From assembly GCF_013409645.1 (NCBI RefSeq), contig NZ_JACCBG010000001.1, forward strand, positions 1,426,001 to 1,490,000: a stretch of 64,000 nucleotides of DNA. The letters run 5' to 3'. The number at the start of each line of letters is the position of its first letter. The stretch's first letter is position 1. Position numbers and translations under genes: made by a program. The notes below the pieces were generated by a model. The model was not told where the DNA came from, searched no databases, and saw only the letters and a program-made list of their open reading frames with translations. Shown piece by piece: positions 57,183 through 64,000 of the stretch. This DNA is from Nocardioides panaciterrulae (lineage in GTDB: Bacteria; Actinomycetota; Actinomycetes; Propionibacteriales; Nocardioidaceae).

Positions 57183-57266
57183 GGCCCCCCGGATTTCACT
57201 CCGGCAGCACGTTTGGCTAGTATTCAGCGCGTTGCTCACCTGGGCGGAAGCGCCGGGGAACGCAAT

Positions 57267-57339
57267 GGGGCTGTGGCGCAGCTGGTAGCGCATCTGCATG
57301 GCATGCAGAGGGTCAGGGGTTCGAGTCCCCTCAGCTCCA
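57267..57339 (+). tRNA. tRNA-Ala (GGC)
   Basis: Cloverleaf is clear: acceptor GGGGCTG pairs with CAGCTCC; D arm GCGC/GCGC; anticodon stem TCTGC/GCAGA with loop ATGGCAT, anticodon GGC; T arm GGGGT-TCGAGTC-CCC. Discriminator A. CCA is not encoded. A strong hairpin follows. Confidence 0.95.
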
Positions 57340-57346
57340 CCCCGAT

Positions 57347-57377
57347 GAGAGGCCGGCGCCGATGGCGCCGGCCTCTC
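57347..57377 (+). terminator. Terminator after tRNA-Ala
   Basis: GAGAGGCCGGCGCC (57347-57360) pairs with GGCGCCGGCCTCTC (57364-57377), 14 perfect pairs and loop GAT, eight bases after the tRNA. Confidence 0.85.
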
Positions 57378-57407
57378 TGCATCTCACCCACGGTTCCGCG
57401 TCGACGC

Positions 57408-57525: not shown

Positions 57526-58971
57526 GTGGAGCACGACGCGATCGACGCGCTGCGGGAGCGGCATCCCGCTTGGCGGCTGCTGCGGGCCGGCAACGGCACC
57601 CTCATCCTGTCCTTCCTCGGGACCTACTTCGTCGAGGGCAACCGGGGTGCGTGTCCGGGCAGCGAGGTGGCGGCGGCGCTCGACGACCACCTCTACGCCC
57701 TCGACGCCGCGCTCTCTGACGGGCGCGAGCAGGCCCGATTCCCGAAGGCTCCACGCGCCTACCTGGAGGACTGGTCGGCCACCGAGGCCGGCTACCTGCG
57801 CCGCTTCTACCCGGCCGGCGACGACGAGGTGCACTACGAGGTGACGCCGGCGTTCGAGAAGGCGTACGCCTGGGTGGAGTCGCTGCGGGGCCGAGCCTTC
57901 GTGGGCACCGAGTCACGGCTGCAAACGGTCGTGGAGCTGCTGCGCCAGATCGTGCACGGGACCGAAGCCGATCCGCAGGCGCGGCTGGCCGAGCTGCGGC
58001 GCAGGCGCGAGGAGATCGACACCGAGATCGCTGCGGTCGAGGCCGGTGAGATGGCCGTGCTCGACGAGACCGGGGTGCGCGACCGCTACCAGCAGTTCGC
58101 CGGGACCGCTCGCGAGCTGCTCTCCGACTTCCGCGAGGTCGAGGAGAACTTCCGGCTACTCGACCGCGCCGCCCGCGAGCGGATCGCCGCCTGGGACGGC
58201 TCCAAGGGCGAGCTGCTCGCCGACCTGGTCGGGTCCCGCTCCGACATCGCCGGCTCCGACCAGGGCCGCAGCTTCCAGGCCTTCTACGACTTCCTGCTCT
58301 CCGAGGCGCGCCAGGACGAGCTGTCCGACCTTCTCGGGCGCGTGGCGGGGCTGAGCATGGTGGAGGCCGACCGGCGGCTGCGCAGCATCCACCACGACTG
58401 GGCGGAGGCTGCCGAGCGCGCCCACCGGACCGTGCGGCAGATCTCCGAGCAGCTGCGCCGCTTCCTCGACGACCAGGTGTGGCTGGAGAACCGTCGCGTG
58501 CTCGATCTGGTCCGCGCCGTCGAGACCACGGCGCTGGAGGTCCGCGACGACCCCCCGGGTTTCGGGCTGGAGGTCGAGGTGCCCGGGCTCGGGATCGTGC
58601 TGCCCTTCGAGCGGCCGCTCTACGAGCCGCCGGCGGCCGCGGACGTCGAGAGCCTGATCCCGCCCGCCACCGAGGAGGAGCTCGCGGCGGACCTCCTCTT
58701 CACCCAGGCCTTCGTCGACCAGGTCCGGCTGGCCGGCAACATCCGAGCCGTGCTTCCCGAGCGGTCCTCGGCCCTGCTGTCCGACATCCTCGAGATGTAC
58801 CCCATCGAGCAGGGGGCCGCCGAGATCGTCGGCTACCTCGCCCTGGCCGACGACGACCTGAAGATCGAGATGGACGACACCGAGGAGACCCTCCTCGACT
58901 ACCCGGACCCGGCCGACCCCGACCGGCTCAAGCGGGCCCGGCTGCCGAAGGTGACGGTGAGACGAACATGA
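57526..58971 (+). CDS. jetA: Wadjet JetA (DUF3375)
   Basis: 481 residues, kleisin-like/MukF-like subunit of the Wadjet anti-plasmid complex. DUF3375 features: IDALRERHPAWRLLRAGNGTLILSFL at the start, FPKAPRAYLEDW, a coiled-coil middle (LAELRRRREEIDTEIAAVEAGE, TARELLSDFREVEENF) and a C-terminal winged-helix-like part. GTG 57526 is chosen for AAGG eight bases upstream; GTG 57517 is also possible. Its stop overlaps the jetB ATG (ATGA). Confidence 0.92.
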   Translation: MEHDAIDALRERHPAWRLLRAGNGTLILSFLGTYFVEGNRGACPGSEVAAALDDHLYALDAALSDGREQARFPKAPRAYLEDWSATEAGYLRRFYPAGDDEVHYEVTPAFEKAYAWVESLRGRAFVGTESRLQTVVELLRQIVHGTEADPQARLAELRRRREEIDTEIAAVEAGEMAVLDETGVRDRYQQFAGTARELLSDFREVEENFRLLDRAARERIAAWDGSKGELLADLVGSRSDIAGSDQGRSFQAFYDFLLSEARQDELSDLLGRVAGLSMVEADRRLRSIHHDWAEAAERAHRTVRQISEQLRRFLDDQVWLENRRVLDLVRAVETTALEVRDDPPGFGLEVEVPGLGIVLPFERPLYEPPAAADVESLIPPATEEELAADLLFTQAFVDQVRLAGNIRAVLPERSSALLSDILEMYPIEQGAAEIVGYLALADDDLKIEMDDTEETLLDYPDPADPDRLKRARLPKVTVRRT

Positions 58972-59546
58972 GCGACGAGCACGCGGTCGGGTCGGCGATC
59001 ATCCGACTGATGCAGGGCGTGGTCTACCGCGAGGCCGACGAGGACACCTGGCTCACGCTGGAGCGCTCGACTGGCGGCGTACGCGACCACTTCGCGACCA
59101 TCGGGGTCGAGGTCGTCGTCGACGACGCCGAGGGCTACGCCTACCTCCGGTCGCGCCCGGAGGTGGAGGGCGAGGAGGCGCTCCCGCGGCTGGTGCGCCG
59201 CCGGGCGCTGACCTACAACGTCTCCCTCCTTCTCGTCCTGCTCCGCAAGCGCCTGCTGGAGTTCGAGACCTCTGGCAGCGAGGGGCGCCTGGTCCTCACC
59301 CGCGACCAGATCGTGGAGATGCTGCGCACGTTCCAGACTGACTCCTCCAACGAGGCGCGTCTGGTCGACCAGGCCGAGCGCACCATCGGGAAGGCCGCCG
59401 AGCTGGGCTTCCTGCGGGCCCTCCGCGGCCAGGCCGACCACTGGGAGGTGCGCCGGATCCTCAAGGCCTACGTCGACGCCGAGACCCTTTCCGGGTTCGC
59501 CGGCAAGCTCCGGCAGTACGCCGGGACCGGAGGCGACGATGAGTGA
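58968..59546 (+). CDS. jetB: Wadjet JetB (DUF4194)
   Basis: 192 residues, MukE-like (KITE) subunit. DUF4194 features: AIIRLMQGVVYREADEDTW, GEEALPRLVRRRALTYNVSLLLVLLRKRLLEFE, RDQIVEMLRTFQTDSSNEARLVDQ and WEVRRILKAYVDAE. Overlaps jetA by four bases and jetC by eight, so the three are made in fixed ratio. Confidence 0.92.
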   Translation: MSDEHAVGSAIIRLMQGVVYREADEDTWLTLERSTGGVRDHFATIGVEVVVDDAEGYAYLRSRPEVEGEEALPRLVRRRALTYNVSLLLVLLRKRLLEFETSGSEGRLVLTRDQIVEMLRTFQTDSSNEARLVDQAERTIGKAAELGFLRALRGQADHWEVRRILKAYVDAETLSGFAGKLRQYAGTGGDDE

Positions 59547-62500
59547 CGGGCTCTTCTCGGCGGTGGAGCTCGCCGACTCCGGCCGTGCGGGCTACCGGCT
59601 GCACCACCTCGAGGTGTTCAACTGGGGCACCTTCGACCGGCAGGTGTGGCGGCTCACCCCCGGCGCGGACACCTCGCTGCTCACCGGCGACATCGGCTCG
59701 GGCAAGTCCACGCTCGTCGACGCGCTCACGACGCTGCTGATGCCGGCGCACAAGATCTCCTACAACAAGGCCGCCGGCGCCGAGGCCAGGGAGCGCACGC
59801 TGCGTTCCTACGTGGAGGGCCACTACAAGTCCGAGCGGATGGAGGCCTCCGGCCGGTCCCGGGCCATCGGCCTGCGCACGGACGCGAGGACCTACTCCGT
59901 CGTCCTCGGGGTCTTCACCAACGACGGCTACGACGAGACCGTGACGCTGGCGCAGGTCTTCCAGCAGCGCGAGAGCAGCGGACAGCCGTACCGCTTCTAC
60001 GTCACCGCCACCAAGGAGCTCACCGTCGCGGTGGACTTCGCCGACTTCGGGGCCGACCTGCGCGACCTGCGCAAGCGGCTGCGGGCCGGCGGAGCGGAGC
60101 TGTTCGACGACTTCCCGAAGTACTCCACGTCCCTGCGGCGGCTCCTCGGCATCCGTTCCGAGCAGGCGCTCGAGCTCTTCCACCAGACCGTGTCGATGAA
60201 GTCGGTCGGCAACCTCAACGACTTCGTCCGCGACCACATGCTCGAGCCGTCGGACGCGACCGACCGGGTCCGCGAGATCATCGGCCACTTCGAGGACCTC
60301 ACCAAGGCCCACGACGCGGTCAAGCGGGCCCGGGAGCAGCTCGAGGCGCTGGCCCCCATCGTGGCCACGTCGCAGCGGTACGACGCCGCGCTGGCCGAGC
60401 GCGAGGACCTGGAACGCCAACGGGGCGCCGTGCGGCTCTTCATCGCGGAGACGCGCTCGCGGCTGCTCGGGGAGGAGATCGTCTCGCTCGAGGGCGACGG
60501 GGAGCGGCTGCTCGGCGAGCAGGACGAGGCGAAGCGGCAGCTCGCCGCCCTGGCCGGCGAGCGGGAGTCGCTGATTGCCGAGCGCGAGCGCGCAGGCGGC
60601 GACCGGGTCGGCGAGCTCGAGCGGATCGCCCGGGAGGCGCGCAGCCTGGCGGAGGAGCGGCGCCGTCGTCGCGCCCTCTTCGACGCGGCGGTCGCCGACG
60701 CCGACCTGGGCGAGGTGCGTGACGCCGTCGGCTTCGGCGCGCTGGCCGCCCTGGTCGCCGACGCGAGACCGCAGCTGGCCGGCGACAAGCGGGCGCTGGA
60801 CGCCCGTTTCGCCGAGCTGATCGGGCAGGTCAGGGAGACCGGCACACGACGGGACGCGGTCAGCGACGAGCTGGCCAGCCTGGAGCAGCGCACCAACAAC
60901 CTGCCCACCGAGCAGGTCGAACTGCGCACGCAGCTCTGCGCCGATCTCGGGCTGTCTCCCGAGCAGCTGCCCTACCCCGGCGAGCTCCTCGACGTCGCCG
61001 AGGAGCACGCCGAGTGGCGCGGCGCCGCGGAGCGGGTGCTGCGCGGGTTCGCGCTGTCCCTGCTGGTGCCCCAGGAGCACTACGAGGCCGTCACAGGATG
61101 GGTCAACGCCCGCCGGCTCACCTCCAGCCGCCGTGACGGCCGAACCGTGGGGGCGAAGCTCGTCCACGAGCGGGTATCCGCGCGGCGGGTGCCGCTGCAG
61201 CGCGCCGGCAGCGACGCGCTCATGCTCGCCGACTGCCTCCAGGTCAAAGAGGGGCCGTTCCGCGACTACCTCCTCGACGAGGTCACCAACCGGGCGAGCT
61301 TCCGGTGCGCCGAGACCTTGGAGGAGTTCCGGGCCGAGCGGCGTGCGGTGACCCGCGAGGGGCAGGTCCGCTCGGGCGAGCGCCACGAGAAGGACGACCG
61401 CCACCGCGTCGACGACCCGCGCCGCTGGGTGCTCGGCTGGGCCAACGAGCGCAAGATCGCCGCGCTCCGGGTCGAGCTGGCCGAGCTCGAGGCCGCGCGC
61501 GACGCGAGCGAGGAGGAGCTCACTCGGGTCGGCGAGGCGCGGGAGACCGTCCAGCGACGCAGCGAGGCGTTCGCCCGGCTCGACGGGTACCAGTCCTGGG
61601 CCGACCTGGACGTCGCCGGGGCCGAGGAGCGTGGCGCCGCCGCCGACGCCGAGCGGGCTCGGCTCGAGGCCGGGTCCTCGAGGCTGGCGGAGATCAAGCA
61701 GGCGCTCGACCACAATGCCGGGCGCACCGCCGAGGTCGGCGCCAGGATCGAGCTGCTCACCGGGCGGTTGGCCACCTCGGACGCCGAGCGGCGTCGCTGC
61801 GTGGACGAGAAGGCGCGGGACGACGAGGCGGTGGCCCACCACCCGGCGGCGGTGCTCAACGCAGCGCGCGAGTCGTACGCCGCGCTCCTCAGTCGCCTCG
61901 GGAAGGCCGTGCCCACCAGCTCGGCGGAGTGCGGCCGCGCTGGCGACGCCCTGACCGAGGACCTGCACCGGCGCATCGAGCGGTTGACCAGGGAGCTCGG
62001 TGGCTTCGGGCAGAGCCTCGCGGCCCACATGAGCGAGGTGCTCCGGCGCTGGCCCGAGCTGCGGGCGGACATGGACGCGACCGTCGACTCGCGCCAGGAC
62101 TTCCTCGCGTTCCACGAGCGGGTCGCCGGTGATGACCTGCCGCAGTTCGAACAGGAGTTCAAGCAGCAGCTCAACACCAACACCATCCGCGAGCTGGCGC
62201 AGTTCAACAGCTGGTTGCGCCGGCAGGCCGAGGAGATCGGCGACCGGGTCGCACGGATCAACGAGGCGCTCGGCGCGATCCCCTACAACCCGGGTCGGTT
62301 CATCCGCCTGGAGAAGCAGCCGACCAACAACCAGGACGTCGCCACGTTCCGGGCCGACCTGCGCAACGCCACCGACGACACCATCTCCGGCGTCGACGAC
62401 CACTACTCCGAGCAGCGGTTCCTCGAGGTCAAGCGGATGATCGAGCGGTTCCGGGGCCGCGAGGGCTACGCCGACTCCGACCGGGCCTGGACCCGCCGGG

Positions 62501-62937
62501 TGACCGATGTGCGCAACTGGTTCGTCTTCTCCGCCTCCGAGCGCGACCTGGAGACCGACGAGGAGTGGGAGCATTACTCCGACTCCGACGGCAAGTCCGG
62601 GGGCCAGAAGGAGAAGCTCGCCTACACCATCCTGGCCGCGTCGCTCGCCTACCAGTTCGGCCTGGAGTGGGGGGCGACTAAGTCCCGGGACTTCCGCTTC
62701 GCCGTGATCGACGAGGCCTTCGGCCGCGGGTCGGACGTGTCCTCCCGCTTCGCGCTCAGCCTGTTCGCCAAGCTCGGCCTGCAGCTGCTCATCGTCACCC
62801 CGCTGCAGAAGGTGCACGTCATCGAGCCCTACGTGAGGGCGATCGGCTACGTCGACAACCCCACCGGCACGTGCTCGCGGCTGCAGACGATGACGATCGA
62901 TGACTACCGCGAGCGGCGCGACGGGCGGCACCGGTGA
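59539..62937 (+). CDS. jetC: Wadjet JetC, SMC/MukB-like ATPase
   Basis: 1132 residues. Walker A GDIGSGKST at 50-58, a long coiled coil (~280-880) broken by a hinge-like part near 470-650 (EHAEWRGAAERVLRGFALSLL), the ABC signature SGGQKEKLAYTI at ~1020 and Walker B FAVIDEAFGRGSD with D1058/E1059. All ATPase motifs are intact. It is the motor that extrudes loops of plasmid DNA. Starts inside jetB; stop overlaps the jetD GTG. Confidence 0.95.
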   Translation: MSDGLFSAVELADSGRAGYRLHHLEVFNWGTFDRQVWRLTPGADTSLLTGDIGSGKSTLVDALTTLLMPAHKISYNKAAGAEARERTLRSYVEGHYKSERMEASGRSRAIGLRTDARTYSVVLGVFTNDGYDETVTLAQVFQQRESSGQPYRFYVTATKELTVAVDFADFGADLRDLRKRLRAGGAELFDDFPKYSTSLRRLLGIRSEQALELFHQTVSMKSVGNLNDFVRDHMLEPSDATDRVREIIGHFEDLTKAHDAVKRAREQLEALAPIVATSQRYDAALAEREDLERQRGAVRLFIAETRSRLLGEEIVSLEGDGERLLGEQDEAKRQLAALAGERESLIAERERAGGDRVGELERIAREARSLAEERRRRRALFDAAVADADLGEVRDAVGFGALAALVADARPQLAGDKRALDARFAELIGQVRETGTRRDAVSDELASLEQRTNNLPTEQVELRTQLCADLGLSPEQLPYPGELLDVAEEHAEWRGAAERVLRGFALSLLVPQEHYEAVTGWVNARRLTSSRRDGRTVGAKLVHERVSARRVPLQRAGSDALMLADCLQVKEGPFRDYLLDEVTNRASFRCAETLEEFRAERRAVTREGQVRSGERHEKDDRHRVDDPRRWVLGWANERKIAALRVELAELEAARDASEEELTRVGEARETVQRRSEAFARLDGYQSWADLDVAGAEERGAAADAERARLEAGSSRLAEIKQALDHNAGRTAEVGARIELLTGRLATSDAERRRCVDEKARDDEAVAHHPAAVLNAARESYAALLSRLGKAVPTSSAECGRAGDALTEDLHRRIERLTRELGGFGQSLAAHMSEVLRRWPELRADMDATVDSRQDFLAFHERVAGDDLPQFEQEFKQQLNTNTIRELAQFNSWLRRQAEEIGDRVARINEALGAIPYNPGRFIRLEKQPTNNQDVATFRADLRNATDDTISGVDDHYSEQRFLEVKRMIERFRGREGYADSDRAWTRRVTDVRNWFVFSASERDLETDEEWEHYSDSDGKSGGQKEKLAYTILAASLAYQFGLEWGATKSRDFRFAVIDEAFGRGSDVSSRFALSLFAKLGLQLLIVTPLQKVHVIEPYVRAIGYVDNPTGTCSRLQTMTIDDYRERRDGRHR

Positions 62938-64000
62938 GCGCTCGGTGGACCACGCCCGATCAGGTTGCCGCCCAGGTCCGCCGGCGGTGGGCCGACGGCA
63001 GCCTGCTGAGGGCGTACGCCGCCGGGGAGCCGTTCCCGAGGGTCGAGGTGCCGCTGCGGGGACCCCGGCCGTCCGAGATCGGGGACGACCTCGAGGAGGT
63101 GCGCGGCTGGGCCGCGCGGCTGGACGCCGGTCGCCGTGACGACGCGCGCTACACCCTGGAGTGGACCACCGTCGGGGGCCGGCACTTCGGCCGCAACCAG
63201 GTCCCGGCGCGGGCGATCGTCTCCGCCTACGAGCAGGCGTGGGGACTTCTGGGCGTGGCCGATGACGTGCGTCGCTTCGCGTCGATCCTCGCCTTGGTCG
63301 CGCCGGTGGCGCCGGTCGAGGCGTGGGTCGTGGCGAACCCGCACAAGGCCCTCGCGGTCGCGGAGCAGTGGCCGGCGCTGCTCGCGGCGTACTCGTGGCT
63401 TGACGAGCACCGTGGCTCCGGCCGCTACCTGCGCGAGATCAGCGCCCCCGGCGTCGACACCAAGCTCGCCGAGCGGCACCGCAGGACACTTGCGGCGCTG
63501 CTCGGCGTCCCCGGCACGGCCTCCGGCTTCCTGGAGGCCCTGGGGCTGCGAGGCAAGCCGGAGCTGGTGCGGTTGCGGCCCTCGCCCGAGCTGGTGGGGC
63601 TCCCGCAGTCGCTCACGGAGCTGGCCGTCCGGGCGGAGGAGCTCGCGGCGCTGGAGCTGCGACCCACCACGGCCCTCGTCGTCGAGAACGAGATCAGCTA
63701 CCTCAGCGTGCCGGTCCCGCCGGGAGGGGTGGTGCTGTGGGGCAAGGGGTTCGAGGTGGACCGCGTCGGCCGGCTGCTCTGGCTGGCGGAGGTCGACGTC
63801 CGCTACTGGGGGGACCTCGACACCCACGGGTTCGCCATCCTCGACCGCTTCCGCGCCTGGCTCCCGCAGGCCCGTTCGGTGCTGATGGACCGCCAGACCC
63901 TTCTCGGTCACCGCGACCGGTGGGGCGTCGAGGAGCGGCCGGCCAGGCCGCTCCTGAGTCGGCTCACGGCCGAGGAGCACGAGCTCTACGACGACCTGGT
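62934..64000 (+). CDS. jetD: Wadjet JetD nuclease (DUF3322-DUF2220), 3' end cut by the window
   Basis: 355 residues visible; probably 30-50 more beyond the window. N-terminal DUF3322 (PDQVAAQVRRRWADGSLLRA, WTTVGGRHFGRNQVPARA) and C-terminal Toprim-like DUF2220: E251/E253 in VVENEISYL and D294/D296 in YWGDLDTHGF, with MDRQTLLGHRDRW after. Metal-binding acids are present, so the plasmid-cutting nuclease looks active. GTG start overlaps the jetC stop (GTGA). Confidence 0.93.
   Translation, partial: MSARWTTPDQVAAQVRRRWADGSLLRAYAAGEPFPRVEVPLRGPRPSEIGDDLEEVRGWAARLDAGRRDDARYTLEWTTVGGRHFGRNQVPARAIVSAYEQAWGLLGVADDVRRFASILALVAPVAPVEAWVVANPHKALAVAEQWPALLAAYSWLDEHRGSGRYLREISAPGVDTKLAERHRRTLAALLGVPGTASGFLEALGLRGKPELVRLRPSPELVGLPQSLTELAVRAEELAALELRPTTALVVENEISYLSVPVPPGGVVLWGKGFEVDRVGRLLWLAEVDVRYWGDLDTHGFAILDRFRAWLPQARSVLMDRQTLLGHRDRWGVEERPARPLLSRLTAEEHELYDDL

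What the first reader, a model, noticed from the sequence alone, without database searches (positions are those of the whole stretch)
57526..64000. Wadjet (JetABCD) defence operon directly behind tRNA-Ala
Four genes with 4-8 nt overlaps encode DUF3375, DUF4194, an SMC-like ATPase with intact Walker A, signature and Walker B, and a DUF3322/DUF2220 Toprim nuclease. This is the Wadjet order known to cleave circular plasmids. It begins right after a tRNA gene, a common integration site, while upstream genes are housekeeping. The system is known; its presence and the tRNA location here are what is notable.
Basis: partly seen in the sequence, partly recalled or inferred. Interest (0 to 1): 0.7.

Follow-up and report, generated by a model that had tools for sequence, protein, structure and literature searches.

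The report
Plasmid-defence operon beside a tRNA
An actinobacterium carries an ordinary, complete Wadjet operon (a machine that cuts plasmids) next to a tRNA gene; it looks horizontally acquired but not inserted at the tRNA, and the same genome holds a second copy that lacks the cutting enzyme.

Summary
Window 57526-63998 and its continuation hold a complete type I Wadjet operon, jetABCD. All four proteins hit PADLOC JetA1/B1/C1/D1; jetD is whole at 382 aa, ending at chromosome position 1490082. ATPase motifs and the JetD metal-site residues are present. The type is patchy: full-length JetA at 57% identity or more in 11 of 215 genomes of the genus. JetC from the genus does not form one clade, so horizontal spread is well supported.

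The tRNA-integration reading is not supported. The tRNA keeps a strong hairpin right behind it, no copy of its 3' end was found in the 37 kb searched, the nearest phage-type integrase is over 270 kb away, and related operons seldom sit near tRNAs.

A side result is more interesting. The genome has a second JetABC set without JetD. In the genus JetA occurs in 129 of 215 genomes but a JetA-JetD pair in only 26. In one syntenic group of nine, one genome has JetD and eight lack it.

Filed as a new member of a known kind.

The parts
57266..57342 (+). tRNA-Ala (anticodon GGC)
   Evidence: ARAGORN; follows the His_Phos_1 gene in 30 of 30 loci examined, G000 included
57347..57377 (+). terminator-like hairpin directly behind the tRNA (14-bp stem)
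   Evidence: fold -34.5 kcal/mol for 57343-57402, z -4.10, 0 of 200 shuffles as stable
57526..58971 (+). jetA, 481 aa, DUF3375 (kleisin-like subunit)
   Evidence: PADLOC JetA1 1.5e-193, PF11855 1.8e-140
58968..59546 (+). jetB, 192 aa, DUF4194/MksE-like (KITE subunit)
   Evidence: PADLOC JetB1 8.8e-108, PF13835 9.7e-44
59539..62937 (+). jetC, 1132 aa, SMC-like ATPase; Walker A GDIGSGKST, signature KSGGQKEK, Walker B FAVIDEAF
   Evidence: PADLOC JetC1 E=0, PF13555 and PF13558, motifs invariant in four relatives
62934..64000 (+). jetD, DUF3322 + JetD_C (Toprim nuclease), 5' part; whole gene is 382 aa and ends at chromosome position 1490082
   Evidence: PADLOC JetD1 5.5e-114 on the truncated frame; completed in L009:5934-7082; residues E251 and D294/D296 align with the metal site of solved JetD

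Best explanation
A complete type I Wadjet (JetABCD/MksBEFG/EptABCD) anti-plasmid operon that entered this Nocardioides-like lineage horizontally and now sits behind a tRNA-Ala and its terminator without being a tRNA-integrated island. Inferred mechanism, from characterised homologues: JetA, JetB and JetC form a dimer-of-dimers SMC motor that loads on DNA and extrudes loops using ATP; on a small circle extrusion runs to completion, the motors meet, and JetD is released from autoinhibition and cuts the circle. Shown here: gene content, order, intact ATPase motifs and JetD metal-site residues, patchy distribution, non-monophyly in the genus. Not shown here: expression, complex formation, cleavage, plasmid restriction.
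For: Family profiles for all four proteins; solved JetC and JetD/MksG chains are the only PDB relatives by sequence; E251 aligns with E248 of the solved JetD(E248A) and the GDxD motif is kept; translational overlaps of 4, 8 and 4 nt; close type in 11 of 215 genus genomes with different flanks; the 11 genus JetC rows do not form one clade (AU p 5.7e-75); no tRNA-end repeat, tRNA hairpin intact, no integrase within 270 kb. Mechanism: passages of review PMC10586767 and of PMC10123090.
Against: No functional data. Composition is that of the host, so a recent transfer is not shown. G050 also has this operon 267 nt behind a tRNA (tRNA-Leu) and L148 within 437 nt, so a weak preference for tRNA neighbourhoods is not excluded. 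The AU test used a quick LG+G4 tree.
Confidence: 0.85

Rival explanations
1. A small genomic island that integrated site-specifically at tRNA-Ala, bringing jetABCD, with its integrase and right att site later lost.
For: The operon is the first gene set behind the tRNA; the segment behind this tRNA differs among relatives; the operon type is horizontally spread; G050 has its copy behind tRNA-Leu.
Against: No 12-mer of the tRNA repeated on the same strand in 37 kb, best ungapped match of the last 25 nt is 17 of 25; hairpin still next to the tRNA; no integrase within 270 kb; 12 of 12 other genus loci of the type have no tRNA in the 1500-base flank; 4 of 75 assessable loci, the window included, have a tRNA within 600 nt upstream.
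Confidence: 0.12
2. The operon acts mainly as a chromosome-organising MksBEF-type condensin rather than in plasmid defence.
For: MksBEF of P. [quoted passage not shown] the same genome has a second JetABC set without JetD.
Against: This operon keeps JetD with its metal-site residues and is patchy in the genus, unlike a housekeeping function.
Confidence: 0.05

Closest known systems
Wadjet type I (JetABCD), e.g. E. coli GF4-3 and P. aeruginosa PA14
   Same: Four subunits in the same order, JetA1-D1 profiles, solved JetC and JetD chains found by sequence
   Different: Only remote sequence relatives of the solved proteins (JetC E 2.2e-54, JetD E 1.7e-11 and 2.7e-09)
MksBEFG of Corynebacterium glutamicum
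   Same: Solved MksG is the closest PDB match of JetD (1.8e-28); same DUF3375/DUF4194/SMC/Toprim set
   Different: Chromosomal context not compared here
EptABCD of Mycobacterium smegmatis
   Same: Same system by the literature; best-scoring JetC relatives include many mycobacteria at 68-71% identity
MksBEF without nuclease (P. aeruginosa)
   Same: The second operon of this genome has JetA, JetB, JetC and no JetD
   Different: That operon lies elsewhere (G000:C1:1293.7-1299.4 kb) and its JetC is 28% identical to the window's; no sequence comparison with P. aeruginosa MksB was made

Membership tests
Wadjet type I | JetA (DUF3375), JetB (DUF4194), JetC (SMC/MukB-like), JetD (DUF3322/DUF2220 Toprim) encoded together in this order | tested here: met
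Wadjet type I | Intact SMC ATPase: Walker A, signature, Walker B | tested here: met
   motifs in the sequence and invariant in four relatives
Wadjet type I | JetD Toprim acidic residues | tested here: met
   E251 opposite E248 of 8q72 (E248A mutant); YWGDLD opposite YWGDMD
Wadjet type I | Restriction of small circular plasmids; ATP-dependent cleavage of circular DNA | not testable with these tools
   needs an experiment
tRNA-integrated genomic island | Direct repeat of the tRNA 3' end at the far boundary | tested here: not met
   none in 37 kb at 12-mer level on the same strand
tRNA-integrated genomic island | Site-specific recombinase in or near the element | tested here: not met
   nearest of 9 Phage_integrase matches at 1,210,318-1,210,848, over 270 kb away; no Resolvase match
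tRNA-integrated genomic island | Empty site in close relatives | tested here: inconclusive
   16 relatives lack jet genes behind the same tRNA-Ala, but none shares the proVWX right flank, so no boundary can be drawn

The most novel reading that the evidence does not exclude
In this genus the JetABC motor is mainly kept without a nuclease, as a maintenance or silencing SMC complex, and JetD is a detachable part that is repeatedly lost and exchanged or regained; this genome carries both states at once, a complete horizontally acquired Wadjet (the window) and a nuclease-free JetABC (second operon).
Probability: 0.45. Interest if true: 0.6.

Novelty: new member of a known kind. Interest (0 to 1): 0.38.

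Why it matters
The operon itself adds one more well-supported, horizontally spread Wadjet to a phylum where such systems are already known to be common (42% of Actinobacteria by PMC10482375, passage seen). The side result matters more. How Wadjet-like defence machines and chromosome-organising MksBEF/MukBEF machines turn into each other is an open question (the review PMC10586767, passage, calls the relationship unresolved and suggests loss of JetD). The JetC 95%-identical pair G175 (with JetD) and G125 (without), at a shared genomic place, would make that transition directly testable.

Tried and rejected
tRNA 3'-end repeat as att site: none. Recurrent tRNA adjacency of this Wadjet clade, suggested by G050 where jetA lies 267 nt behind tRNA-Leu: rejected as general; of 84 loci, 2 had no JetA match and 7 had too little upstream sequence, and 4 of the remaining 75 (the window included) have a tRNA within 600 nt upstream, one of these on the opposite strand; 0 of 12.

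Compositional island: jet genes have 70.5-74.3% GC and GC3 0.94-0.96 against 70.6-74.0% for 4-kb blocks of the window; the proA value of that script was out of frame and is not used.

Phage, plasmid or viral carriage: no confirmed relative in viral contigs (7 pattern matches, none confirmed; a single-protein query that finds close relatives only), none in 50,697 phage records (JetD), 11 of 72,556 plasmid records with a JetC relative at E <= 1e-20, all under 60% identity.

Loss of ATPase motifs in nuclease-free JetC: my script printed 0 of 48, but the pattern was too narrow; the alignment shows Walker A in 46 of 48 and signature and Walker B in 47 of 48, the same letters as in the JetD-bearing rows. 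Loss of the JetB N-terminal patch in nuclease-free operons: not seen, an xFEGD-like patch is present in both states (by eye).

A conserved neighbourhood for the second operon of this genome: none of 20 flanking frames matched the other 60 loci. JetD in Oerskovia, Cellulosimicrobium and some Gordonia loci without a JetD match: 7 frames scanned, 0 PADLOC families; at least one frame, that of L117, was badly chosen, since one search places a JetD match there in another frame, so this is unresolved.

Choice of rows: the tree left out L160 (no JetC piece over 900 aa); the tree used 46 rows, leaving out L118-L162 except L152, the second operon, G154, and L090 and L104 as identical copies. The 61 loci are 13 with JetD and 48 without, picked by me; the 16 loci of the close type and of the 442-448-bit type that also have JetD, and the other nuclease-free loci, were left out.

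Full report
What is there. Each protein matches the type I Wadjet profile of PADLOC: JetA1 1.5e-193, JetB1 8.8e-108, JetC1 E=0, JetD1 5.5e-114. Pfam agrees. The window is bases 1426001-1490000 of a 4.27 Mb single-contig genome. The continuation completes jetD at 382 aa, ending at 1490082, followed by an ABC transporter set with a glycine-betaine-type binding protein. The genus is most likely Nocardioides: the JetC of genome G196 is identical to that of a record titled Nocardioides sp. RYN_209, an inference.

Is it intact. JetC has Walker A, signature and Walker B motifs that are invariant in four relatives. JetD E251 lies opposite the residue mutated in the solved JetD(E248A), and the GDxD motif is kept. 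The PDB chains found by sequence are JetC for JetC, and MksG and JetD for JetD. By the passages I saw of PMC10586767 and PMC10123090, such complexes cut circular but not linear DNA, need ATP, and spare circles above roughly 100 kb. That mechanism is inferred for this operon, not shown.

Is it an island at the tRNA. tRNA-Ala follows the same upstream gene in 30 of 30 loci examined, this genome included, so the tRNA is ancestral. Of 16 relatives whose site was fetched, one cut short by a contig end, none has jet genes or the proW/proX genes behind it. The operon type is patchy: 18 of 215 genus genomes give any JetA match, 11 a full-length one at 57% identity or more, one (G154) at 45%, one a fragment at 66%. 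JetC of the 11 genus members is not one clade on a 46-row tree (AU p 5.7e-75, quick LG+G4 tree); they fall among Mycobacteriaceae, Gordonia, Mumia, Flexivirga and Amycolatopsis, and in a separate second group. So horizontal spread is well supported. Insertion at the tRNA is not: no 12-mer of the tRNA recurs on the same strand in 37 kb; the hairpin next to the tRNA is intact (-34.5 kcal/mol, z -4.1) and 26 of 28 relatives fold at -28 kcal/mol or below in the same 60 nt (without a shuffle control); the nearest of 9 Phage_integrase matches is over 270 kb away, with no Resolvase match. Of the relatives, 0 of 12 genus loci have a tRNA in the 1500-base flank, and 4 of 75 assessable loci, the window among them, have one within 600 nt upstream. 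Two of these, G050 (tRNA-Leu) and L148 (tRNA-Arg), are on the same strand, so a weak preference is not excluded. Composition is that of the host.

The second operon. The genome has two DUF3375 genes but only one JetD_C. The other operon (chromosome about 1293.7-1299.4 kb) has JetA1, JetB1 and JetC1, JetC 28% identical to the window's, and no JetD; the next gene is a PAP2-family protein. In the genus, DUF3375 occurs in 129 of 215 genomes and JetD_C in 32. Pairing the rows by position gives 29 JetA-JetD pairs in 26 genomes; 28 of the 32 JetD genomes also have JetA, so 101 of the 129 JetA genomes have no JetD_C match at all (coordinates typed from the tables; some assemblies are fragmented).

Nuclease on and off. 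I compared 61 such loci, 13 with JetD and 48 without, chosen from the lists. The ATPase motifs are the same in both states (46 of 48 and 47 of 48 nuclease-free rows, the rest gapped). No JetD remnant was found in the 48 at E 0.01. On the JetC tree the JetD state needs 5 changes, against 12.0 on average for shuffled labels, with several long branches. Nine loci share both flanks; one of them, G175, has JetD and eight do not. G175 and G125 are 95.2% identical in JetC. In another group JetA and JetC of G073/G156 and G208/G216 are 88-94% identical, but JetD only 54-58%, which suggests that JetD was exchanged or gained separately. Whether loss or regain prevails is not settled: one gain is simpler for G175, but its ATGA overlap with jetC looks like the ancestral junction. 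Against a fixed housekeeping locus, the second operon of this genome shares no flanking gene with the other 60 loci.

Relation to the literature. Loss of JetD giving MksBEF has been proposed for P. aeruginosa (passage of PMC10586767). Searches for Wadjet with JetD and tRNA, for MksBEF/MksG/Wadjet, for JetABC without JetD, and for Nocardioides with Wadjet (listings only, open-licence papers) showed no title or abstract start describing the Nocardioides pattern; that is not proof that none exists.

Verdict. The window holds a real, intact, already known kind of system. Its tRNA neighbourhood is probably incidental. The nuclease-free companion and the on/off pattern of JetD in the genus deserve follow-up more than the operon itself.

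Noticed in passing
L079:9670-15430 (G000:C1 about 1293.7-1299.4 kb), outside the window: Second JetABC operon of type I without JetD; the only JetD of the genome is that of the window operon.
   Followed up: yes
L199 (G175) against L225 (G125) and L217 (G061): Syntenic JetABC operons that differ by presence of JetD; JetC 95.2% and 93.0% identical.
   Followed up: partly
L192, L196, L201, L202: JetA and JetC 88-94% identical between G073/G156 and G208/G216 but JetD only 54-58%, suggesting exchange of the nuclease gene.
   Followed up: partly
L076:4657-5008 (G050): A 65%-identical Wadjet lies 267 nt behind a tRNA-Leu in another family.
   Followed up: partly
L115, L116, L119, L120, L121, L122, L145: Oerskovia, Gordonia and Cellulosimicrobium loci with JetA and JetC but no JetD match at E 1e-5; in L117 a JetD match lies upstream of jetA.
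   Followed up: partly
L160: MAG contig (Humibacillus) with the JetA match about 8 kb upstream of JetC; insertion or assembly fault.
   Followed up: no
G013:C1:2033303-2033824: A JetD_C match without a DUF3375 gene within 8 kb, perhaps another Wadjet type.
   Followed up: no
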